This document shows, piece by piece, positions 32,726-45,417 of a stretch of 64,000 bases of DNA. Position numbers and translations under genes: made by a program. Position 1 is the stretch's first letter; each line of letters begins with the position of its first letter. Source of the stretch: Acidobacteriota bacterium (lineage in GTDB: Bacteria > Acidobacteriota > Terriglobia > Terriglobales > Acidobacteriaceae); assembly GCA_021791875.1 (NCBI GenBank), contig JAJYVU010000013.1, positions 1 to 64,000 on the forward strand, in the 5' to 3' direction. The notes under the pieces were generated by a model that made no database searches, was not told the DNA's origin, and saw only the letters and a program-made list of their open reading frames with translations.

Positions 32726-35176
32726 CTACTTCAGATTCAGCTCGTCAAATACACGCTTCCATTGCTTCTGATTCTTGCGGTAGCTCCGCTTCAAATCATC
32801 CAGAATTCGCTCAAAATCCGCATGCCCGCGCAGCCGGTTCCATGCCGGATTCCGCGAAAACCAAGGATAATTCTCATTCCCCAGATAGATCGCCCGCCGC
32901 AGCCAGTGCAGCGCCTCGCTCTCGTCTCCATCCACTGCGAAATACGTCGCCAGCCGGTACGCCATCTCGCTGTCCGCCTCGGCCGCGGCCATCGATTCCT
33001 CCTCGATCAGCGCCGCCGCCCGCTCCCGCTGACCAATCTGCACGTAGCACATCGCCAGCGTCGGATAGATGATCCGAAGACTCGTATCGTCCTTCAAAAC
33101 CGCTTCCATGATGGCGATTGCTTCGTCCAGCTTCCCCTGCCGCATCCGCTGGTACCCCAGCGAGGTCCGCAGCAGCGGATGCCGTGGCTCCAGTGCGAGC
33201 CCCTTCTGCAATTCTCCTTCGGCGATATCCAGCAGGTTCTGATAGTGGTACACCCGCGCCCGATGGTTGTAGATCATCGGCGCGCTCGACGGATTCAACA
33301 GCAGCGCCTGGTGGAATTGCGCCAGCGCCTCCTCGTACATGCCGTCCAGCCGCAGCATCGTCCCGGCCAGCACATGCACGTTCCAGGCATTGGCCGCGCT
33401 CCCCAGCAGCGTCTCGATCCCGTGCCGCGCGCTTTCCTTCTCGCCGCGCGCCAGCAGCATGTACACCCGGTACAGATTCGCCTCCACCGAGCCCGGATCG
33501 ATCTCCAGTGCCTTATCGAACGCCCTTCGCGCCGCCATCACATGCATATGCCCGCCCAGCCCGTGCCGCGTGTACTGCACATGCGTCACGCCCAGCCCGC
33601 TCCAACCGGCGGCATATTGCGGCTCACGCTCGGTCACCTGCTCAAACATCTCCCGCGCCCGGTCCAGATCCGTCCGGCTGCCGGTGCGCAGCATAAAAGA
33701 CGAAAGCATCGCGCTGGCCTGCAGATACAGCTCTGAAATCCCCTCCGCCAGCGCTTCTGACCGCATCGTCAGCCGCTCGGTTCGCGCCTTCAGTTGCCCG
33801 CTTCCCTGCAGCGAAGCAAACACCTCGTTGCAGATCTCCGTCTGCACGGCAATCAGGTCAAACGACGCCACGCTGATCGACCCTCCCCCGCGCACGCTCT
33901 CCCGCGAAACATCCAGCAGCTGCCAGTTCAGGTCAAATCCCTTGTCCGAGCGCAAAAAGCTTCCCGTCAGCACGTAATCCACAATCAGCTTGTGCCCGAT
34001 TGCCAGCGGATCCATCTGCGACTGCGGCACATGCATCAGCGCGCTCGACGGACGCACCACCAGCGAAGTCATCCGCGCCAGCCGCGCTCCAATCGCATCG
34101 GCCAGCGCATATCCGTACAGCGGAGCCACATCCACGCTGCCCAGATTTTGAAACGGCAGCACCAGGATCGCCTGCGACTTCTCCTGCTCCTGCTCCGACT
34201 CCCGAAAGCGCTCCGCCAACAGCGAAAGCAAGCCTGTCGCGCGCTTCTCCCGCTCCGGAATCGTCGGCATCAGGTTTGCTCCGGCATCGCCCGGAATCAC
34301 CCCCGTCTCAAACTGCATCGTCTTCATGATCGTGCGCAGCGCCTCCCGCACGTCCGCTGCGCTCGCATAACGCTCCGCCGGAGTCTTCTGCAGCAGCTTC
34401 AGGATCACCGAGCTCAATTCCTGCGGCACCTCCGGGCAGCACTCCGAAAGCGGCACCGGGTCCAGAAACTGAATCGCCCGAATCGTCTGAAATTCATCCG
34501 TATTCGGCTTCGAAAACGGATGCCGCCCGCTCACCAGCTCGTACAGAATCACTCCCAGCGCCCACAAATCGCTCTGCACGCTGCTCTGCCCCGTCACAAA
34601 CTGCTCTGGAGCCATATACGCAATCGTGCCGCCACGCGCCGTATACGTCGCTGTTTCCGCCCCTTTCGACGAAGGCTTCGCCGGATCGAATTCCGCTTCT
34701 TCCCTCGTCAGCCGCCGCGCCAGGCCAAAGTCCAGAATCTTCGCCAGCCCCCCATCGGTCAGCATCACGTTCGCCGGCTTCAAATCACGATGAAAAATCC
34801 CCAGCGAATGCGCCGCGTTCAACCCATCCGCAATCTGGATGCCCACCGAAATCGCCAGTTGCACATTGGACGGCCCCTTCGCAATCAGCTTGTCCAGCGA
34901 TTGCCCCGGAACATACTGCATCGCGATGAACGTTTCGTCTTCCTGCTCTCCCACCTCGTAGATCGCGCAGACGTTCGGGTGCTCAATCGCCGAGGCCATC
35001 TGCGCCTCACGCAGCACCGTCTTGCGCATCTGCTCGGCGCTCAGCAGACCCCGCCGCAACACCTTCAACACCACTGGCCGCATCAGCAGCGAATCTTCCG
35101 CCAGATACACCACTCCGCTGCCGCCCGCGCCCAGCTTCCGCACCAGTTCGTACTGCTTGATCTTTCGCGATTTCAT
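32726..35176 (-). CDS. Serine/threonine protein kinase with TPR repeats
   Basis: 816 residues. Kinase domain 8-290 with GAGGSG glycine loop, Lys38, Glu57, HRDLKPAN (catalytic Asp131), DFG at 149-151 and APEQF, so it should be active. A central region (about 335-490; QAILVLPFQNLG, GYALADAIGARLARM) resembles the TolB-like/adenylate-cyclase-associated domain often found between kinase and TPR in Acidobacteria. Several TPR units follow (e.g. AAGWSGLGVTHVQY, AFDKALEIDPGS, LLNPSSAPMIYNHRARV). No membrane helix is visible, so it is probably cytosolic. Substrate unknown. Confidence 0.93.
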   Translation of the reverse strand: MKSRKIKQYELVRKLGAGGSGVVYLAEDSLLMRPVVLKVLRRGLLSAEQMRKTVLREAQMASAIEHPNVCAIYEVGEQEDETFIAMQYVPGQSLDKLIAKGPSNVQLAISVGIQIADGLNAAHSLGIFHRDLKPANVMLTDGGLAKILDFGLARRLTREEAEFDPAKPSSKGAETATYTARGGTIAYMAPEQFVTGQSSVQSDLWALGVILYELVSGRHPFSKPNTDEFQTIRAIQFLDPVPLSECCPEVPQELSSVILKLLQKTPAERYASAADVREALRTIMKTMQFETGVIPGDAGANLMPTIPEREKRATGLLSLLAERFRESEQEQEKSQAILVLPFQNLGSVDVAPLYGYALADAIGARLARMTSLVVRPSSALMHVPQSQMDPLAIGHKLIVDYVLTGSFLRSDKGFDLNWQLLDVSRESVRGGGSISVASFDLIAVQTEICNEVFASLQGSGQLKARTERLTMRSEALAEGISELYLQASAMLSSFMLRTGSRTDLDRAREMFEQVTEREPQYAAGWSGLGVTHVQYTRHGLGGHMHVMAARRAFDKALEIDPGSVEANLYRVYMLLARGEKESARHGIETLLGSAANAWNVHVLAGTMLRLDGMYEEALAQFHQALLLNPSSAPMIYNHRARVYHYQNLLDIAEGELQKGLALEPRHPLLRTSLGYQRMRQGKLDEAIAIMEAVLKDDTSLRIIYPTLAMCYVQIGQRERAAALIEEESMAAAEADSEMAYRLATYFAVDGDESEALHWLRRAIYLGNENYPWFSRNPAWNRLRGHADFERILDDLKRSYRKNQKQWKRVFDELNLK

Positions 35177-35453
35177 TCCCTTTCAGTCTAGCGTTTTCGG
35201 CTCAAAACTCTGTGAATGCGCCGGTGAAATCTCCGCACGCACAATTTGCGCCCCGGTACCCGGTGTATCTCACGCTATGGGCGGCCGTCCCCGCGCATCG
35301 TTATACTCAGTGCGTTGCCATGGAAACAAAGCCCCTCTTTTTCCGCTTTGTTTCAACCCCGCATCCGGCTCGGGCAGTTTCAGCGCGCCGCCCCGCCAGT
35401 TGCTTTGGACCACAGCGCCCGTACTCGGCGCCTTTGGAGGTATCTCTTTCCCA

Positions 35454-37079
35454 ATGAATTCGCGACTTGCCGCTTTCCACCGGATCCTTCTCTCCGCCGC
35501 CCTCTGTGCTTTCGCCGTCACCGCGGCGCACGCCCAGGCCGTTGCCGCCGCCGGAGTGCTCAGCAGCCAGACTCCGCACCCCAACATCAAGGTCCCGTTC
35601 ACCCAGATCACGACCACGCAGACGCCAACCCAGACCGTCGCCGTACCGTATACGCTGCGCCTGCCCAACATCATCAGCAACAACGCAGTCCTCCAGCGCG
35701 GCCGCCCCATTCACATCTGGGGCTGGAGCAGCCCCAACGAAAACATCACCGTCCAATTCAACAATCAAAATGAGCAGACCACGGCCAATTCGCAAGGCCA
35801 GTGGGAGCTCTGGCTCGCGCCCGAACCCGCCGGCGGACCCTACACCCTCACCGTCACCGGCAGCAACAACGAGCCGCCGCTCACTGTCAGCAATATCCTC
35901 GTCGGCGACGTCTGGTTCGCTTCCGGCCAGTCCAACATGCAGATCCCCCTCAACGGTTTCCCCGGCTCCGCCGTCATCAAAAACGCCGCACAGGAAATCG
36001 CCAACTCCAACTATCCCGACATCCGCCTGCTCAACCTCGCAGACACTGCCTCGTCCACGCCGCTCGACAACATCACCGCCACCTGGACCACCTGCGATCC
36101 CACCACCACCCCCAACTTCTCCGCCGTCGCCTATTTCTTCGCGCGCGACCTCGAAGCCCATCTCCACATCCCCATCGGCATCATCGACTCCTCCTGGGGC
36201 GGCACACCCATCTCCTCATGGATGAGCAACACCCTCCTCACCTCGCACCCAGGCTTCCAGCCCGTTTACGACAAATGGAAGGCCTTCGAGGCAAAGCAGC
36301 CTCAGGTCACCATCCTCGGGGAGCAGCAACAGCCCGAAGAGGCAGCCCGCAAACACGTCTGGCATCCTGACCCGAAATCCTGGCACCCCTCCTGGCTCTG
36401 GAACGGCATGGTCGCGCCCATGACCCCTTACACCATTCGCGGCTTCATCTGGTATCAGGGGGAAACCGACGCCACTGACGACTGGAACCCAAATCTCTAC
36501 CGACGCCTTTTCCCAGCCATGATTCAGGACTGGCGCGACCAATGGCATGAAGGCAACCTGCCCTTCCTCTATGTCCAGATATCCAGCTTCTCCGCGCCAA
36601 ATCAGCACTGGGGCGTCATCCGCAACGCCCAGCGCACCACCCTCGCCCTCCGCGACACCGGCATGGCGGTCAGCCTTGACATCGGAGAAAAAAACAACAT
36701 CCATCCGCCGGACAAGCAGACCGTAGCCCAGCGCCTCGCGCTCACCGCTTATCACGTCTCCTACGGCCAACAGATCGAAGACGAAGGACCGCTCTTCCAG
36801 CAGGTCATCCGCCAGGGCGAACAGCTCCGCGTCTACTTCACTCACACCGCTCAGGGCCTCGTCAGCAAGGGCGGCCCGCTCAAAGGCTTTGAGATTCAAG
36901 ACAACGACGGCAACTGGCACTACGTCAACGCCGTTATTCAAGGCAATACCGTCGTCGTCGACACCACGTCCATCCCCAACACCCCCGCGGTCCGCTACGC
37001 CTGGGCCAACTACTCAACCGCCAATCTCTACAACGGTGTCAGCCTGCCCGCTTCCACCTTCGAGGCCACTGTCCCATAA
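35454..37079 (+). CDS. Sialate O-acetylesterase-like secreted esterase
   Basis: 541 residues from ATG 35454, with GGAGG 13 bases upstream; the frame extends left but only the ATG gives a signal peptide (ending AHAQA). An SGNH-type esterase with the family landmarks: WFASGQSNMQIPL (nucleophile Ser), SSWGGTPISSWM, IWYQGETDA, and DIGEKNNIHPPDK (catalytic Asp/His). An N-terminal beta-sandwich (VLQRGRPIHIWGWS) precedes the catalytic part. It removes O-acetyl groups from sialic acids or, more likely here, from plant or microbial polysaccharides. Ends with a strong terminator. Confidence 0.92.
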   Translation: MNSRLAAFHRILLSAALCAFAVTAAHAQAVAAAGVLSSQTPHPNIKVPFTQITTTQTPTQTVAVPYTLRLPNIISNNAVLQRGRPIHIWGWSSPNENITVQFNNQNEQTTANSQGQWELWLAPEPAGGPYTLTVTGSNNEPPLTVSNILVGDVWFASGQSNMQIPLNGFPGSAVIKNAAQEIANSNYPDIRLLNLADTASSTPLDNITATWTTCDPTTTPNFSAVAYFFARDLEAHLHIPIGIIDSSWGGTPISSWMSNTLLTSHPGFQPVYDKWKAFEAKQPQVTILGEQQQPEEAARKHVWHPDPKSWHPSWLWNGMVAPMTPYTIRGFIWYQGETDATDDWNPNLYRRLFPAMIQDWRDQWHEGNLPFLYVQISSFSAPNQHWGVIRNAQRTTLALRDTGMAVSLDIGEKNNIHPPDKQTVAQRLALTAYHVSYGQQIEDEGPLFQQVIRQGEQLRVYFTHTAQGLVSKGGPLKGFEIQDNDGNWHYVNAVIQGNTVVVDTTSIPNTPAVRYAWANYSTANLYNGVSLPASTFEATVP

Positions 37080-38250: not shown

Positions 38251-38442
38251 CACTCTCCTGTTCGTCCCAGCCTAACTGATCCCCGCGTACGCCGGGCGCG
38301 CCCACAATCTGGGTTTCGCATACTTTCTCCTCGTGCCTTTCGAGGAAAAAGTACGGACCGCATCGGCAAAAGGCCGACCCAACCACAGATAGGCAGCGAA
38401 AACCTCACAGCTATCCCCACTTATCAGCGACAATATTTCAAA

Positions 38443-39666
38443 ATGTCCTCCACCGACCTGCTCCTCGCTCCCGACGCTCTTCCTGCCGGCTTCCGCTTCG
38501 CCTGCGTCACCGCCGGACTCAAAGCCAGCGGCAAACCCGACTTCGCCCTCGCCATCGCCGATGCGCCCGCCTCTGCCGCCGCGCTCTACACCGCCAATCG
38601 CGTGCAGGCCGCGCCGCTCATCGTCGACCGCAAACACATCGCCCGCAGCGGCGGAAAAATCCGAGTTGTCGCCGTCAATTCCGGCAATGCCAACTGCGCC
38701 ACCGGAGAAGCCGGCATCCAAGCCGCAGAGCAGGTCTGCGCCGCAGCTTCGGAAGCCTTCGCCTGCCACGACTACGAAGTCTTTCCATCCTCCACCGGCA
38801 TCATCGGCGTCCCGCTTCCCGCCGAAAAACTCGTCGCCGCCATGCCCGCCGCCAGCGCGCAGGCCGCCGGCACCGCAGAAGCATTCTCCGCTTTCGCCCG
38901 TGGAATCCTCACCACCGACACACGCCCCAAGGTCGCCTCAGCCAGGGCCGAAATCGACGGCCAGACCGTCCGTATCGTTGGAACCTGCAAGGGCGCCGGC
39001 ATGATCGGCCCCCAACTCGTCCCCCACGCCACCATGCTCGGTTACATCTTCACTGACGCCGCCATCGAACCCGCCGTCCTCGACTCGTACCTCCGCGCCT
39101 CGGTCGACACGAGCTTCAACTGCATCTCCATCGACGGCGACATGTCCACCAATGACACGGTTCTCATCCTCGCCTCTGGAACCTCCGGCGTTGCCCTTCC
39201 TGCCGGTCATCCCGCCTTCCGCATTGCCCTCGACGCTGTCTGCCTCTCACTCGCCCGGCAAATCGTTCACGACGGCGAAGGCGTCACCCACGTCGTCGAA
39301 CTACAGATCAAGGGCGCACCCAGCGATGCCGACGCCCGCACCATCGCCAAAACCATCGCCCATTCCCCCCTCGTCAAAACCGCCTGGGCCGGCATGGACC
39401 CCAACTGGGGCCGACTCATGGCCGCCATTGGCTACTCCGGCGTCGCCATCGAACCCGAGCGCATCAATATCTGGTTCGGACGCCACGAAATCTGCCGCAA
39501 CGGCGGACGCTCTCCGCTCTACGATGAGGCACAGGCCCATGCCTACCTTCAGCAGCGCGAATTCACCGTCCGCATCGATCTCGGCCTCGGCTCGGGCACT
39601 TGCAATTTCTTCACCACTGACCTCACCCACGAGTACGTGCACATCAACGCCGACTACTCCACATAA
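38443..39666 (+). CDS. argJ: Bifunctional ornithine acetyltransferase / N-acetylglutamate synthase
   Basis: 407 residues from ATG 38443. ArgJ moves acetyl from N-acetylornithine to glutamate and so recycles the acetyl group in arginine synthesis. The precursor cleaves itself before a threonine; here the motif is HAT197MLGYIFTDA, so Thr197 becomes the catalytic N-terminus. Other landmarks: VNSGNANCATGE, SSTGIIGVPLP, ILTTDTRPK, CKGAGMIGP, NDTVLILASG, TAWAGMDPNWGR. The stretch between KGAGMIGP and ATM is three residues longer than usual. No other arg genes are near. Confidence 0.95.
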   Translation: MSSTDLLLAPDALPAGFRFACVTAGLKASGKPDFALAIADAPASAAALYTANRVQAAPLIVDRKHIARSGGKIRVVAVNSGNANCATGEAGIQAAEQVCAAASEAFACHDYEVFPSSTGIIGVPLPAEKLVAAMPAASAQAAGTAEAFSAFARGILTTDTRPKVASARAEIDGQTVRIVGTCKGAGMIGPQLVPHATMLGYIFTDAAIEPAVLDSYLRASVDTSFNCISIDGDMSTNDTVLILASGTSGVALPAGHPAFRIALDAVCLSLARQIVHDGEGVTHVVELQIKGAPSDADARTIAKTIAHSPLVKTAWAGMDPNWGRLMAAIGYSGVAIEPERINIWFGRHEICRNGGRSPLYDEAQAHAYLQQREFTVRIDLGLGSGTCNFFTTDLTHEYVHINADYST

Positions 39667-39963
39667 ATTTCGCCCGCTGCACCAAAAACTGTGCAATCCG
39701 CTCAAGCCCGCATCGTTGCTGATCTTCTGGCTTTCTGCCCCCACATATGCACAGGCATTTCCTCACTTCTGAGGAAAAATCTCCGGATTCTTCCTCTTGC
39801 GCATTCCGTGTCAATCGTGAAAGAGTGGCGGCTTCGCCTGTCGCCATTCCCCTCCGCTCCCATTCGCTCTGCCGCGTTTCCTCTCGATCCAGCGCAAGCA
39901 CTCACTCTGAGCTGCCGTTCGCGTGCGGTAAAATTTAGAGTCACCCCTGTGCGCCGTTAAACC
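39667..39963 (+). promoter_or_regulatory. Upstream region of the E1-alpha-like/aceE pair
   Basis: 297 bases with no supportable gene. A TAAAAT hexamer at about 39929, roughly 35 bases before the next start, is a candidate -10 element; no clear -35 is seen at standard spacing. The region should hold the promoter for the E1-alpha-like gene and probably aceE. Confidence 0.4.
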
Positions 39964-40737
39964 ATGAAACAAAACATGCAAAGTGCGATTTCGAAGCCAC
40001 CCGGCGACGCCGTCGTTGCCGGCAAGCACGGCGCTCCGCTTATCAGCAACGCAAAGCTCCTGGACCTGCACTCCGCCCTGCTTCGAGCTACCGGCGCAGG
40101 CGTCAAGGCTAAGGACGCAGCCGCTCGGGTTGCCGGTGCCGCCCCGGCCGCAAGCATCAGGTTCCCTGCCGTTTACGCCTCGCTCCTCGCCGATTTCACC
40201 CCGCAGGACCGCATCACCGCTGACATTCCTCTCCATCTCGCGCCTTTCACCGCCCTCGCACCTCTCGACCTCAGCCCCATCGTCGCCACCGGGCTGGCAC
40301 TCGGTCTGGCCCAGCATCAGCCTGGCTCGCTGGTCATCTCCTTCACCCGCGCCAACCGCCTCGATCCCCGCAACTTTCGCCAGACCCTCCGCGTAGCCGC
40401 GCAAAACCATCTGCCCATTCTTTACGTCCTTCTGCCTGCGCCTGCCGCCCCGTCCGACTTCGACTGGAGCGCCCGCGCAATCCTCGAAAACGTCCCTTGC
40501 ATCCCCGTCGACGCCCACGACGCCGTCGCCCTTTACCGCGTCGCGCAGGAAACCATCCTCCGCGCCCGCAACCAGGGAGGCCCAACACTCATCGACTGTA
40601 AGCAGGTACAGATTTCGCGCGGCGATACCAACGCCGTCGCCCGCATGGAAGCCCATCTCCGCCGCAAAGGCCTTATGCCCTCGGCTCGCCAGCTCGCTTC
40701 CAACAGAACAATTTCAACCAGCTCGACACTGGCCTGA
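39964..40737 (+). CDS. Degenerate pyruvate dehydrogenase E1-alpha-like protein
   Basis: 257 residues. The last 90 residues match the end of E1-alpha chains: VPCIPVDAHDAVALYRVAQETILRARNQGGPTLIDCK corresponds to the VDGxDvxAVyxaxxxAvxxARxGxGPtLIE motif. The middle, LVISFTRANRLDPRNFRQTLRVAAQNHLPILYVLL, aligns with the ThDP site, but the essential GDG is missing and no matching NN follows. Catalysis is therefore unlikely. It begins 298 bases after argJ and ends 27 bases before aceE, so it is probably cotranscribed with aceE and may regulate or assemble the complex. That role is inferred. Confidence 0.72.
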   Translation: MKQNMQSAISKPPGDAVVAGKHGAPLISNAKLLDLHSALLRATGAGVKAKDAAARVAGAAPAASIRFPAVYASLLADFTPQDRITADIPLHLAPFTALAPLDLSPIVATGLALGLAQHQPGSLVISFTRANRLDPRNFRQTLRVAAQNHLPILYVLLPAPAAPSDFDWSARAILENVPCIPVDAHDAVALYRVAQETILRARNQGGPTLIDCKQVQISRGDTNAVARMEAHLRRKGLMPSARQLASNRTISTSSTLA

Positions 40738-40764: not shown

Positions 40765-43434
40765 ATGACGACAAAAACTCCGACTCCCGTAATGAACGAC
40801 TTTCAGCAGGAACTCTCCGAATGGATCGAAGCGTTCGACGATATAGTGGTCGCCGAAGGTCCTGAGCAGGGCGGCCAGATCCTCGACGCCCTTCGCCAGC
40901 GCGCCCGCGAAGCCGGCATCGCCGCCCCCAGCCAGATCACCACCCCCTACCTCAATACCATCCCCAGGCATGAGGAAGTGCCCTACCCCGGCAATCGCGA
41001 CATCGAAAGACGCATCGAAGCCCTCATCCGCTGGAACGCCATGGCCATGGTCCATGGCCAGAACAAGAAGGACGACGGCATCGGTGGCCACATCGCCACT
41101 TACTCCTCGCTCTGCACCCTCCTCGAAGTCGGCTTGAATCACTTCTTCCGCGCCACCTACGGCGACCAGCCCGGCGACTTCATCTACTTCCAGGGCCACG
41201 CCTCACCCGGCGTTTATGCCCGCGCGTTCCTCGAGGGCCGCCTTACCGAGCAGCATCTGCTCAACTACCGCCACGAGCTCCGCGAGCATCCCGGTCTGTC
41301 TTCCTATCCGCATCCCTGGCTCATGCCCGACTTCTGGCGGTTCCCCACCGTCTCCATGGGCATCGGACCTCTCAACGCCATCTACCAGGCGCGCTTCATG
41401 CGCTACCTTGAGAATCGCGGCATCATCGAGAAAACGCCACGCAAGGTCTGGGCCTTCGTCGGCGATGGCGAAACCGACGAAGTCGATACCCTCGGCGCTA
41501 TCTCCCTCGCCGCCCGCGAAAAGCTTGACAACCTCATCTTTGTCGTCAACTGCAACCTCCAGCGCCTCGATGGACCGGTCCGCGGCAACAAGCGCATCAT
41601 CGACGAGCTCGAAGGTGTCTTCCACGGCGCCGGTTGGAACGTTATCAAGGTCGTCTGGGGCGCTGACTGGGACAAACTCTTCGAGCGCGACCACACCGGC
41701 CTTCTGCTCAAGCGCATGGAAGAGTGCGTCGACGGCGACTATCAGACCTTCAAGGCCAAGGGTGGCGCCTATATCCGCGAGCACTTCTTCGGCAAGTACC
41801 CTGAGCTCCTCGAACTCGTTAAGGACTACACCGACGACCAGATCGCCCACCTCCATCGCGGCGGTCACGACTCTCTCAAGATCTACAACGCCTACAAGCG
41901 TGCCACCGAGCACAAGGGCGGTCCCACCGTCATCCTCGCCAAGACCGTGAAGGGCTACGGCATCGGCACCACCCAGGCTCGCAATGCTGCACACCAGGAA
42001 AAGAAGCTCACTGACGATGCCCTCTCCGGCTTCGTCAAGCGCTTCAACATTCCTGTCCCCGAAGACCTCGCCAAGAACGGCAAGCCCTTCTGCCCGGACG
42101 CGGACAGCCCCGAGCTGGTCTACCTCCGCGAACGCCGCGACGAACTCGGCGGCTTCATGCCCTCACGCAACGTCCCTCCGTTTGAATTCAAGGCCCCTGC
42201 ACTCGACTACTACGCTGAGTGGACCGGCGGCTCCCGCGGCCGCGAAGTCTCCACCACCATGGGCTTCGTCAGCATCCTGCGCCACCTGCTCAAGGACTCC
42301 AACTTCGGTAAGCTCGTCGTTCCCATCGTCCCCGATGAAGGCCGTACCTTCGGCCTCGAATCAGCCATCCGCCAGGTCGGCATCTACGCGCCGGAAGGCC
42401 AGAAGTACACCCCCCACGATCAGGACATGCTCCTCTACTACCGCGAGGAGAAGGATGGTCAGATCCTGGAGGAAGGCATCACTGAAGCCGGCTCCATGGC
42501 CTCCTTCACTGCTGCCGGCACGGCCTATGCCAACTACGGTGTGCCGACCATCCCTTTCTACATGTACTACTCCATGTTTGGCTTCCAGCGCGTCGGCGAC
42601 ATGATCTGGGCCTTCGCCGACTCGCGCGGCAAAGGCTTCCTCATGGCCGGCACCGCCGGCCGCACCACCATGCTCGGCGAAGGACTGCAGCACCAGGACG
42701 GCCACAGCCACGTGCTCTCCAGCACCGTTCCCACCTGTATCAGCTACGACCCCGCCTACGTCTATGAGCTGGCCGTCATCGTACAGGATGGCCTCCGCCG
42801 CATGTACCAGGAGAACGAGCAGGTCTTCTATTACATCACCATGTACAACGAAGACTACGCCATGCCCGCCATGCCCGAAGGCGCCACCGAGGGCATCCTC
42901 CGCGGCATCTACAAGGTCAGCCCCGCGGTCAAAGGCAAGGGTGTTGCACAACTCTTCGGCAGCGGCCCCATTCTTCGCGAAGTGCTCCACGCCCAGCAAA
43001 TCCTCGCAGAGAAGTACGACGTCCAGACTGACGTCTGGAGCGTCACCAGCTACACGGAACTGCGCCGCGATGCGCTCTCCGTCGAGCGCTGGAATCGCCT
43101 CCATCCCACCGAACCGGAAAAGACACCCTACCTCCTGCAGGCACTCAAGAGCGCCAAGGGCCCCATCATCGCCGCAACCGACTACATGAAGGTTGTCCCC
43201 GATCAGCTCGCCCCTTGGCTCTCCAACCGACTCATCTCGCTCGGCACTGACGGCTTTGGCCGCAGCGACAACCGCGAGCACCTGCGCCGCCACTTCGAAG
43301 TCAACGCCGAATCCATCGCCGCTGCCACCCTCTCCCGTCTGGCCCGCGACGGTAAATTCGACGCAGCCAGAGCCCAGAAAGCCTTCACCGACCTTGGCGT
43401 CGATACCGAAAAAATCGACCCGGCCCACGCCTAG
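40765..43434 (+). CDS. aceE: Pyruvate dehydrogenase E1 component, homodimeric
   Basis: 889 residues, the usual size. Decarboxylates pyruvate with thiamine diphosphate and transfers the acetyl group to lipoyl E2. The ThDP motif is GDGETDEVDTLGA ending in VVNCNLQRLDGPVRGN. Other family signatures: YFQGHASPGVYARAFLEGRL, HPWLMPDFWRFPTVSMG, KTVKGYG, GITEAGSMASF, GRTTMLGEGLQHQDGHS and YDPAYVYELAVI. E2 and E3 genes are not in the window. It lies directly after a degenerate E1-alpha-like gene. Confidence 0.96.
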   Translation: MTTKTPTPVMNDFQQELSEWIEAFDDIVVAEGPEQGGQILDALRQRAREAGIAAPSQITTPYLNTIPRHEEVPYPGNRDIERRIEALIRWNAMAMVHGQNKKDDGIGGHIATYSSLCTLLEVGLNHFFRATYGDQPGDFIYFQGHASPGVYARAFLEGRLTEQHLLNYRHELREHPGLSSYPHPWLMPDFWRFPTVSMGIGPLNAIYQARFMRYLENRGIIEKTPRKVWAFVGDGETDEVDTLGAISLAAREKLDNLIFVVNCNLQRLDGPVRGNKRIIDELEGVFHGAGWNVIKVVWGADWDKLFERDHTGLLLKRMEECVDGDYQTFKAKGGAYIREHFFGKYPELLELVKDYTDDQIAHLHRGGHDSLKIYNAYKRATEHKGGPTVILAKTVKGYGIGTTQARNAAHQEKKLTDDALSGFVKRFNIPVPEDLAKNGKPFCPDADSPELVYLRERRDELGGFMPSRNVPPFEFKAPALDYYAEWTGGSRGREVSTTMGFVSILRHLLKDSNFGKLVVPIVPDEGRTFGLESAIRQVGIYAPEGQKYTPHDQDMLLYYREEKDGQILEEGITEAGSMASFTAAGTAYANYGVPTIPFYMYYSMFGFQRVGDMIWAFADSRGKGFLMAGTAGRTTMLGEGLQHQDGHSHVLSSTVPTCISYDPAYVYELAVIVQDGLRRMYQENEQVFYYITMYNEDYAMPAMPEGATEGILRGIYKVSPAVKGKGVAQLFGSGPILREVLHAQQILAEKYDVQTDVWSVTSYTELRRDALSVERWNRLHPTEPEKTPYLLQALKSAKGPIIAATDYMKVVPDQLAPWLSNRLISLGTDGFGRSDNREHLRRHFEVNAESIAAATLSRLARDGKFDAARAQKAFTDLGVDTEKIDPAHA

Positions 43435-43644: not shown

Positions 43645-45417
43645 GTGAGAGCTTTTCTGCGCATCTTCGCCGCCGCTGCTGTCTGCGCGGTCATTCCCGC
43701 CGCCCACGCCGCAACCGCCCATCCCATCCCCGGACCACAGTCTTCGGACCTGCCGTCACCCTATCTCACCAATACCGAAGGCTCGACCTACGTCCCCATG
43801 GACAGCTGGATCTACCCGGCTCTCGACCGCCTGCACGCCATGGGTTACCTCGACACGGCCTACCTGGGCCTGCGCCCCTGGACTCGCCTCGAAATCGCGC
43901 AAATGCTCGAAAATGACGCCGCAAAAATTCAGCTCAACGCCAACAAGGACCCTCAGGCCCTCGCCATTTACGAAGCTGTCTGGAATAACATCGAGCCCAC
44001 CGTCGGCCATCCCACTACGCTCTTCCATCCGCGCACGGTCCTCGGCCGGGTCTATACCCAGATTCGCGGCATCGGCGGCACGCCCCTCCGCGACAGCTTC
44101 CACCTCGGCCAGACCATCATCAACGACTACGGACGCCCCTACGCCCCCGGCTTCAACAACTACACCGGCTTCAGCACCCGCACCCGCGCTGGCCGCTTCG
44201 CTCTTTACTTCCGCGGCGAATTCCAGCACGCCCCCGCCACCACTGGCTACTCACAAGCCCTGGCCCAATACCTCTCTGAGGATATCGACGTCATCACCTA
44301 CGATCCCAATATTCACTACGATGACCTTCCGGCCGGCCAGCTCCCCGCCTCCGATTACTTCCGCCTCATGGAAGCCAATCTTTCGTATCACCTTCTCGGC
44401 AACGACATCTCCATCGGCAAAACCGACCACTGGCTCGGACCCGACAAAGGCACCGTCATGTCCTGGAGCAACAACGCCGAAGACATCTACGCCTTCCAGA
44501 TCAACGACCTTCAGCCCTTCCGCATCCCCATTCTTTCCCTGCTCACAGGCCCGTTCCGTTACGAGTTCTTTGTCGGCAGCCTCAAGGGCCACACCTACCC
44601 CAACCAGCCCTGGGTCCACATGGAAAAGATCAGCTTCAAGCCCACTCGTAACCTTGAGATGGGCTTCGATCGCACCATCATCTGGGGCGGCCTCGGCCAC
44701 GAACCCGTCACCTGGCACACCTTCTGGCAAAGCTTCTTCAGCTTCCAGAACGTCTCTGCAGCCACCAAATTCTCCGCCAAGGATCCCGGTGCCCGCTTCA
44801 GCAGCTTCGACTTCAACTACCGGCTCCCCTTCGTCCGCAACTGGATCACCCTCTACTGCGACTCGCTCGTCCATGACGACGTGAGCCCCGTCGATGCGCC
44901 CCGCCGCGCCAGCGTTGCCCCCGGCATTTACCTCTCGCACTTCCCCGGCCTGCCCAGGCTCAGTCTGCGCGTCGAGGCCGTCTCTACCGACCCCGTCAGC
45001 AATCGCCTGCAGTTTGGCCGATTCATGGAGTGGGAAAGCATCCAGAGACAGGGCACCACCAACAAAGGCTTCACTTTTGGCAGTTGGATCGGCCGCGAAA
45101 ACAAAGGTGGCCAGGCATGGCTCACCTGGCACTTCTCACCCAAGGAAGAAGCTCAGTTCATCTACCGCCGCGACAAGGCCAGCAGTGCCTTCATCCCCCG
45201 CAAAATCGACTACACCGCCTTCTTGAACGGCGGCACCACCCAGAACGACTTCACGTTCTCCGTCGTCAAGCGCCTGCTCCCCGACAAGAGCCTCGAACTC
45301 CACGCCTGGGTCCAGTACGAAAACTACCTCATCCCCATCTACAAGACCGGCACCCAGAGCGACACCACCGCCACCGTCCAGTTCACCTGGTACCCCCACG
45401 ATAAGAAACTCTTCTAG
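43645..45417 (+). CDS. Capsule assembly Wzi-family outer-membrane protein with SLH-like N-terminus
   Basis: 590 residues from GTG 43645 with GAGG just upstream. Signal peptide ends AHAAT. Residues about 50-90 (SWIYPALDRLHAMGYLD, LRPWTRLEIAQML) follow the pattern of an S-layer-homology repeat. The remainder is strand-rich with repeated aromatic ends (FSTRTRAGRFALYFRGEF, FGFDRTIIWGG-like, LHAWVQYENY) as in the Wzi barrel that anchors capsule. No capsule genes are near. A strong terminator follows. The Wzi assignment is by overall pattern and length. Confidence 0.8.
   Translation: MRAFLRIFAAAAVCAVIPAAHAATAHPIPGPQSSDLPSPYLTNTEGSTYVPMDSWIYPALDRLHAMGYLDTAYLGLRPWTRLEIAQMLENDAAKIQLNANKDPQALAIYEAVWNNIEPTVGHPTTLFHPRTVLGRVYTQIRGIGGTPLRDSFHLGQTIINDYGRPYAPGFNNYTGFSTRTRAGRFALYFRGEFQHAPATTGYSQALAQYLSEDIDVITYDPNIHYDDLPAGQLPASDYFRLMEANLSYHLLGNDISIGKTDHWLGPDKGTVMSWSNNAEDIYAFQINDLQPFRIPILSLLTGPFRYEFFVGSLKGHTYPNQPWVHMEKISFKPTRNLEMGFDRTIIWGGLGHEPVTWHTFWQSFFSFQNVSAATKFSAKDPGARFSSFDFNYRLPFVRNWITLYCDSLVHDDVSPVDAPRRASVAPGIYLSHFPGLPRLSLRVEAVSTDPVSNRLQFGRFMEWESIQRQGTTNKGFTFGSWIGRENKGGQAWLTWHFSPKEEAQFIYRRDKASSAFIPRKIDYTAFLNGGTTQNDFTFSVVKRLLPDKSLELHAWVQYENYLIPIYKTGTQSDTTATVQFTWYPHDKKLF

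What the first reader, a model, noticed from the sequence alone, without database searches (positions are those of the whole stretch)
39964..40737. E1-alpha-like protein without a ThDP motif directly before aceE
C-terminal E1-alpha sequence is kept, but the GDG of the cofactor motif is gone, and the gene lies 27 bases before a homodimeric E1 that needs no alpha chain. A pseudo-enzyme regulating or assembling pyruvate dehydrogenase is a plausible new component.
Basis: partly seen in the sequence, partly recalled or inferred. Interest (0 to 1): 0.55.

Follow-up and report, generated by a model that had tools for sequence, protein, structure and literature searches.

The report
Dead E1-alpha relative kept beside aceE
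A soil bacterium and nearly half of the relatives examined keep a worn-down copy of one half of an old pyruvate-burning enzyme that has lost its vitamin-cofactor site, sometimes right beside the gene of the enzyme that replaced it, and selection still protects the protein, so it probably has a second, non-enzymatic job.

Summary
Confirmed: 39964-40737 encodes a 257-aa E1-alpha relative without the ThDP motif, 27 bases before a genuine homodimeric aceE. It is not decay in one genome: at least 96 of 200 genomes of the family carry it, and 0 of 91 aligned copies keep G[DE]G. It has the E1-alpha fold (pLDDT 86-87, Z 20-21) and evolves under purifying selection (dN/dS 0.06-0.37 in 25 of 25 chosen congeneric pairs). 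It sits where relatives have intact E1-alpha/E1-beta operons. One genus shows E1-beta lost and the ThDP site of E1-alpha decaying in aceE-carrying species. In 30 of 82 genomes with both genes it neighbours aceE, on either side. It goes mostly with an AceE type without a linked aceF (66 of 79 genomes against 8 of 51). Best reading: a pseudoenzyme made from the old PDH E1-alpha and kept as a non-catalytic assembly or regulatory subunit. The partner is not shown: 14 genomes have it without a detected aceE, and 69 have aceE with neither it nor a native E1-alpha/beta pair.

The parts
39964..40737 (+). Pseudo-E1-alpha gene (257 aa), a relative of the alpha subunit of heterotetrameric pyruvate dehydrogenase E1 without a ThDP site
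40348..40365 (+). Codons 129-134 (RANRLD), the place of the lost GDGSTS ThDP/metal motif
   Evidence: alignment with intact E1-alphas of the same family; 0 of 91 aligned copies keep G[DE]G
40507..40599 (+). Codons 182-212, the retained core VDxxDxVAxYRVAxExxxRARxxGGPTLIDC
   Evidence: holds most of the invariant and near-invariant residues of 86 sequences, 3 of them intact E1-alphas, and of 55 pseudo-E1-alphas only
40765..43434 (+). aceE, homodimeric pyruvate dehydrogenase E1 (the type without a linked aceF)
   Evidence: TIGR00759, 1311.9 bits; AceE tree; no linked E2 seen for this type
38404..39666 (+). argJ, upstream landmark of locus A (start codon approximate)
   Evidence: Pfam ArgJ 2e-140; synteny
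43645..45417 (+). Wzi-like capsule assembly protein, downstream landmark of locus A
   Evidence: 83% identical to the L031 orthologue, which is Pfam PF14052
37441..38253 (-). ABC transporter ATPase, outer landmark of locus A
   Evidence: 89% identical to the L031 orthologue, which is Pfam ABC_tran

Best explanation
The gene is what remains of the alpha subunit of a heterotetrameric pyruvate dehydrogenase E1 (pdhA) that the family originally had. Shown by sequence: (1) relatives have intact E1-alpha plus E1-beta at the same two chromosomal sites; (2) where aceE is present, E1-beta at these sites is nearly always gone (4 of 154 genomes keep one) and the alpha gene, if present, usually has no ThDP site; (3) the remaining protein keeps the E1-alpha fold and a fixed core; (4) it is under purifying selection; (5) it neighbours aceE in many genomes, on either side. 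Inferred: the protein works as a non-catalytic subunit, most likely binding AceE and/or the resident E2, and helps an AceE that came without its own AceF to assemble on, or be regulated within, a complex built on a SucB-type E2. The binding partner and the direction of the effect are not shown.
For: Synteny: argJ - E1a - E1b in G014, G018, G110, G112, G138, G161, G192, G195, G206, G209, G222, against argJ - pseudo-E1a - (aceE) - wzi in others; ftsJ beside E1a - E1b in G003, G015, G025, G031, G105, against ftsJ beside a lone pseudo-E1a in 24. Genus g78: intact pair, no aceE detected (G161, G209, G222); intact pair with aceE (G138, G195); aceE, E1-beta not found, ThDP loop altered (G087, G179). 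The 33 changes of these two at 136 near-invariant columns hit 0 of the 22 columns that pseudo-E1-alphas keep (P 0.0012). Selection: dN/dS 0.06-0.37 in 25 of 25 chosen pairs. Fold. Neighbour of aceE in 30 of 82 genomes with both, 12 in one order and 18 in the other. Association with the AceE type without linked aceF: 66 of 79 against 8 of 51 genomes, 20 of 26 against 7 of 30 genera (133 of 154 aceE genomes typed). An E2 gene lies within 6.5 kb of aceE in 50 of 51 genomes of the other type and in none seen of this type. E2s of G000, G014 and G010 score as SucB_Actino; the linked E2 of G017 as PDHac_trf_long. Twelve genomes with AceE, a native pair or neither hold E2s 51-81% identical to each other.
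Against: 14 genomes have it without a detected aceE; five are under 85% complete, but the nine of genera g9 and g61 are 94-100% complete. Eight carriers have the AceE type with a linked E2. 69 aceE genomes have neither it nor a native pair, so it is not essential for AceE. In 52 of 82 genomes with both genes adjacency was not seen (in some the contig or the fetched stretch ended). In heterotetrameric E1 it is E1-beta, not E1-alpha, that binds the E2 subunit-binding domain (recalled). In Corynebacterium AceE works in a hybrid complex on one E2 (start of the abstract of PMC7568260) without such a protein (recalled). Selection is mostly weaker than on aceE or argJ of the same pair and weak in the aceE-less genus g9 (0.32-0.52 where dS is not saturated). 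The association with AceE type is corrected for shared ancestry only by counting genera; each AceE type is one clade on the AceE tree.
Confidence: 0.42

Rival explanations
1. The protein kept a second, non-PDH job that E1-alpha already had in this family (moonlighting), for example binding a metabolite, a nucleic acid or another enzyme. aceE neighbours it only because aceE entered the old pdhAB operon and uses its promoter.
For: Kept under selection in genomes without detected aceE (G127/G220: 0.29; G004/G106: 0.27; g9 pairs 0.32-0.52); in 52 of 82 genomes with both genes adjacency was not seen; in part of the genomes aceE lies where E1-beta used to be, as expected if it replaced E1-beta in place.
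Against: aceE neighbours it at both sites and on both sides; presence follows the AceE type.
Confidence: 0.28
2. It pairs with an E1-beta of another 2-oxoacid dehydrogenase still in the genome and acts as a dead, regulatory alpha subunit of that enzyme.
For: 198 of 200 genomes have an E1-beta relative at E 1e-60 or better; the fold is E1-alpha-like over residues 17-257.
Against: The E1-beta of its own type is in only 32 of 200 genomes; the other E1-betas are 45-53% identical to the query in the listed rows; no co-localisation with them was seen in the stretches read.
Confidence: 0.13
3. It is only a slowly eroding relic with no function, held open by operon position.
For: Mostly faster evolution than its neighbours; graded decay and many indels; the two intermediates differ from each other with dN/dS 0.46; aceE genomes without it.
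Against: dN/dS under 0.4 in 25 of 25 chosen pairs at dS 0.2-2.0; D82, D186, E196 and R202 invariant in 86 sequences; of the lone remnants seen at the two sites all but one (a lone E1-beta in G006) are alpha.
Confidence: 0.1
4. It is still an enzyme with an altered cofactor site.
For: Selection on the protein.
Against: No conserved replacement motif: the ThDP loop, NN segment and His loop vary and are shortened in different ways.
Confidence: 0.03

Closest known systems
E1-alpha subunit of heterotetrameric PDH/BCKDH (PF00676; TIGR03181/TIGR03182; PDB 1w85, 1umb, 1olu)
   Same: Fold over residues 17-257 (Z 20-21), core VDxxDxVAVYRVAxEAxxRARxGxGPTLI, gene position of intact E1-alpha in relatives
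   Different: No GDG...N ThDP/metal site, no GHS loop, no E1-beta beside it, about 100 residues shorter than intact relatives, 25 bits against a TIGR cut-off of 411
E3-binding protein (PDHX, protein X) of the mammalian PDH complex (recalled)
   Same: A catalytically dead relative of a complex component kept as a structural subunit
   Different: PDHX descends from E2 and its role is established; this descends from E1-alpha and no binding is shown
Transketolase-like protein 1 (TKTL1); title and start of the abstract of PMC3485151 in the listing
   Same: A ThDP-enzyme relative argued to be inactive: the title says that a deletion variant modelling it has no activity; that the deletion removes cofactor-site residues is recalled
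   Different: Human transketolase relative; its inactivity is disputed (title of PMC6334435, same listing)
AceE with linked AceF and lipoamide dehydrogenase (E. coli-like PDH operon)
   Same: The partner aceE belongs to TIGR00759; in G017 the other AceE type lies beside an E2 of PDH type and a pyridine nucleotide-disulphide oxidoreductase, taken to be lpd
   Different: The window's AceE type has no linked E2 in the genomes seen and mostly occurs with the pseudo-E1-alpha
Hybrid PDH/ODH complex of Corynebacterium glutamicum (start of the abstract of PMC7568260)
   Same: AceE working on an E2 that is shared between complexes
   Different: No pseudo-E1 subunit there (recalled)

Membership tests
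Functional PDH E1-alpha (PF00676, TIGR03181/3182) | Sequence and fold of E1-alpha | tested here: met
   Pfam gathering score reached, 25.3 against 22; profile against PDB E1-alpha 1e-47; Z 20.3 and 21.1
Functional PDH E1-alpha (PF00676, TIGR03181/3182) | ThDP/Mg motif GDG...N | tested here: not met
   RANRLD and LPAPA in the window; 0 of 91 aligned relatives keep G[DE]G
Functional PDH E1-alpha (PF00676, TIGR03181/3182) | Equivalog score cut-off | tested here: not met
   25.4 bits against 411 and 17.8 against 394
Functional PDH E1-alpha (PF00676, TIGR03181/3182) | Adjacent E1-beta partner | tested here: not met
   No E1-beta beside it; none of the 96 carriers has the native pair at the two sites
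Pseudoenzyme subunit of a 2-oxoacid dehydrogenase complex | Catalytic site lost while the fold and selection persist | tested here: met
Pseudoenzyme subunit of a 2-oxoacid dehydrogenase complex | Genomic association with the complex | tested here: inconclusive
   Neighbour of aceE in 30 of 82 genomes with both; absent from 69 aceE genomes without a native pair; present without detected aceE in 14
Pseudoenzyme subunit of a 2-oxoacid dehydrogenase complex | Physical presence in the complex | not testable with these tools
   Needs co-purification or structure
Homodimeric AceE (TIGR00759), for the neighbour | Score over the equivalog cut-off, full length | tested here: met
   1311.9 bits against 859.9, profile positions 9-884 of 885

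The most novel reading that the evidence does not exclude
When this bacterial family replaced heterotetrameric E1 by an AceE that lacked its own AceF, the old E1-alpha was turned into a dead adaptor or regulator that lets AceE work on a foreign, SucB-type E2. That would be a pseudo-E1 subunit of the pyruvate dehydrogenase complex, of which the few literature searches made here showed no description, with steps of the conversion still visible among living species.
Probability: 0.25. Interest if true: 0.78.

Novelty: new variant of a known kind. Interest (0 to 1): 0.6.

Why it matters
It offers a natural experiment in how a central metabolic complex is swapped for an unrelated one: intact, redundant, half-lost and pseudoenzyme states exist in living relatives, the first three within a single genus. 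If the protein proves to be a subunit, it adds a component to one of the best-known enzyme complexes and shows what E1-alpha can do besides catalysis. It can be tested directly, because Acidobacterium capsulatum, which appears to be one of the genomes used here (recalled from its genome length), is cultured.

Tried and rejected
Recent decay in this genome only: rejected. Spurious ORF: rejected (selection and fold); the overlapping 281-aa minus-strand ORF 39811-40656 was not tested for conservation. Wzi as the conserved partner: rejected, since no wzi was found beside locus-B copies. Strict dependence on AceE: rejected (14 genomes). Lone remnants always alpha: not quite, G006 has a lone E1-beta at locus B. 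Independent origins at loci A and B: not shown. On a reduced set (20 of 91 pseudo-E1-alphas, chosen by me, with 30 intact and 2 intermediates) one clade of pseudo-E1-alphas is not rejected (support 91), but one clade that also holds the two g78 intermediates is (AU p 0.0004), so the site decayed at least twice; branches are long. Outside the family: in a class-wide search of 200 genomes the listed hits outside the family had open frames of 316 residues or more and best E 7e-50; their ThDP motifs were not read. Literature: pseudoenzyme + E1 alpha + pyruvate dehydrogenase, Acidobacteriaceae + pyruvate dehydrogenase + subunit alpha, and homodimeric E1 + heterotetrameric E1 each gave 0 papers; pyruvate dehydrogenase + Acidobacteria + aceE gave 6, of which passages of one were seen (PMC11636273), naming aceEF and por in A. 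capsulatum; the passages shown do not mention such a gene. A search for disease variants in the core helix gave none.

Limits of the counts. G172, G086, G158 (partial or at contig ends) and a second G194 copy were left out of trees and column counts. The 96 carriers are a lower bound: only hits among the listed rows were fetched. One search flagged one stop codon inside the match in some carriers' rows; I took these for matches running past the gene's end, since the open frames read hold the core, and did not check each one. Locus labels (A, B, unassigned) were given by me; some A labels rest on wzi alone. AceE was typed by score (1360 bits) in the 133 of 154 aceE genomes whose rows were listed; G084, G098 and G169 (fragments) were dropped from the counts. 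That raised the linked count of the other type from 48 to 50 of 51 (G105 and G137 are linked) and left this type at none; in six genomes of this type no E2 was found, and one second E2 (G198) was not located. G005 and G006 were not picked up for the AceE tree. Gap lengths rest on guessed start codons; for the window the script took a later ATG and gave 54 bases instead of 27. Gaps reach 767 bases (G061), and I did not test for genes inside them.

Full report
What is there. The ORF 39964-40737 encodes 257 residues and ends 27 bases before the first ATG of aceE at 40765. The neighbour is a genuine homodimeric E1 (TIGR00759, 1311.9 bits). Alone, the small protein matches only a late part of Pfam E1_dh (residues 169-214, 8.8e-6). 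The ThDP loop GDGSTS of intact relatives reads RANRLD and the NN...ES segment reads LPAPA; the GHS loop is missing.

It is widespread in the family. Relatives without the ThDP motif were first seen in 16 genomes including this one, then, with a profile of those, in 96 of 200 family genomes, counting two intermediates and three partial copies. None of 91 aligned copies keeps G[DE]G. Of 170 columns that are at least 90% uniform in 30 intact E1-alphas, 77 are kept by 15% or fewer of the 91. Thirty columns uniform in at least 80% of the intact set are kept by 70% or more. D82, V182, D186, E196 and R202 (window numbering) are invariant in 86 sequences, 3 of them intact. In a class-wide search of 200 genomes the listed hits outside the family looked like ordinary-length E1-alphas, though their motifs were not read.

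It is a folded protein under selection. AlphaFold gives pLDDT 86.7 with three intact E1-alphas in the alignment and 85.8 with pseudo-E1-alphas only, with nearly the same elements. The best structural matches are E1-alpha chains: Z 20.3 (rmsd 3.6, 220 residues) and Z 21.1 (rmsd 3.8, 234 residues). By Nei-Gojobori counts, dN/dS was 0.06-0.37 in 25 of 25 congeneric pairs that I chose, mostly above that of aceE, argJ, ftsJ, nadK or wzi of the same pair. In eight pairs from genomes without detected aceE it was 0.27-0.52 in six, and synonymous change was saturated in two (one of these pairs is also). The pairs overlap and the method ignores codon bias.

Where it came from. Intact E1-alpha/E1-beta pairs lie at two sites in relatives: after argJ (site A) and beside ftsJ (site B). 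The pseudo-E1-alphas lie at the same sites without E1-beta: 62 at A, 24 at B and 5 unassigned among the 91. E1-beta of this type (71% identity or more to the query; next best 53%) is in 32 of 200 genomes. No carrier has the native pair at A or B, and three genomes have both the native pair and aceE. Genus g78 shows the steps: intact pair and no aceE detected in G161, G209 and G222; intact pair with aceE in G138 and G195; aceE with E1-alpha only, its ThDP loop altered, in G087 and G179. The changes in the last two avoid every column that the pseudo-E1-alphas keep (0 of 22 among 33 changes at 136 columns, P 0.0012); the test treats columns as independent. Between these two dN/dS is 0.46, against 0.03-0.05 between intact g78 copies, so constraint is relaxed at this stage. 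One clade of all altered copies is rejected when these two are included (AU p 0.0004, reduced set), so the site decayed at least twice; one origin for the rest is not rejected. The reverse case, a lone E1-beta, was seen once (G006).

Link with aceE. aceE is in 154 of 200 family genomes, and 82 of these are carriers. In 30 of the 82 the two genes are neighbours on one strand: pseudo-E1-alpha then aceE in 12, aceE then pseudo-E1-alpha in 18. One of each order is near site-B landmarks (G176, G157), the rest at site A; three overlap by an estimated 4 bases, and the largest gap is 767 bases. On the AceE tree each order needs two changes of label, so a few events may explain them.

Two kinds of AceE. 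AceE of the family forms two clades on a tree of 49 rows. Typed by score, one kind has an E2 gene within 6.5 kb in 50 of 51 genomes. The other, to which the window belongs, has none among the E2s located; in six of its 79 genomes no E2 was found. In G017 the linked E2 is of the PDH type and is followed by a disulphide oxidoreductase, probably lipoamide dehydrogenase. The E2s examined in G000, G014 and G010 score as SucB_Actino, and twelve genomes with AceE, with the native pair or with neither hold E2s 51-81% identical to each other; ten of the twelve have a single one. The pseudo-E1-alpha is in 66 of 79 genomes of the window's kind and 8 of 51 of the other, or 20 of 26 and 7 of 30 genera. This is the main support for a role in fitting AceE to a foreign E2. 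It is a correlation within one family, with each AceE kind being a single clade.

Against a PDH role. Fourteen genomes have the protein without a detected aceE. Nine of them, from genera g9 and g61, were checked for PFOR: seven have a full-length one and two (G010, G200) do not. Sixty-nine aceE genomes have neither the protein nor the native pair. In known heterotetrameric E1, E1-beta rather than E1-alpha binds the E2 subunit-binding domain (recalled), so an adaptor role would need a new surface.

Judgement. That this is a dead E1-alpha kept by selection is well supported by sequence (about 0.95). That it is a subunit or regulator of the AceE-containing complex is the likeliest role but unproven (0.42). 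Moonlighting outside PDH is the strongest rival (0.28).

Noticed in passing
L206 (G006): A lone E1-beta of the native PDH type beside ftsJ/nadK, without E1-alpha next to it, in a genome with aceE: the mirror image of the finding.
   Followed up: partly
L046 (G000 contig C22, 83868-85823): The window's own genome also has an intact E1-alpha/E1-beta pair (GDGSTS) of a third group found in nine genomes; six of the nine also have aceE and the pseudo-E1-alpha.
   Followed up: partly
G010 and G200: Genomes rated 100% complete with no detected aceE, native E1-alpha/beta or full-length PFOR; how they make acetyl-CoA from pyruvate is unclear.
   Followed up: no
L190 (G017 contig C7): The other AceE type of the family lies beside an AceF-type E2 and a disulphide oxidoreductase, so the family holds two AceE lineages with different E2 arrangements.
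   Followed up: yes
one search hits: Several further E1-beta families (45-53% identical to the query in the listed rows) are spread unevenly among the genomes.
   Followed up: no
window 39811-40656 (-): A 281-aa open frame runs antisense to the pseudo-E1-alpha gene; probably a by-product of high G+C, not tested.
   Followed up: no
window 35022-37079 (+): An ORF with a SASA-type carbohydrate esterase domain (Pfam PF03629) upstream of the locus.
   Followed up: no
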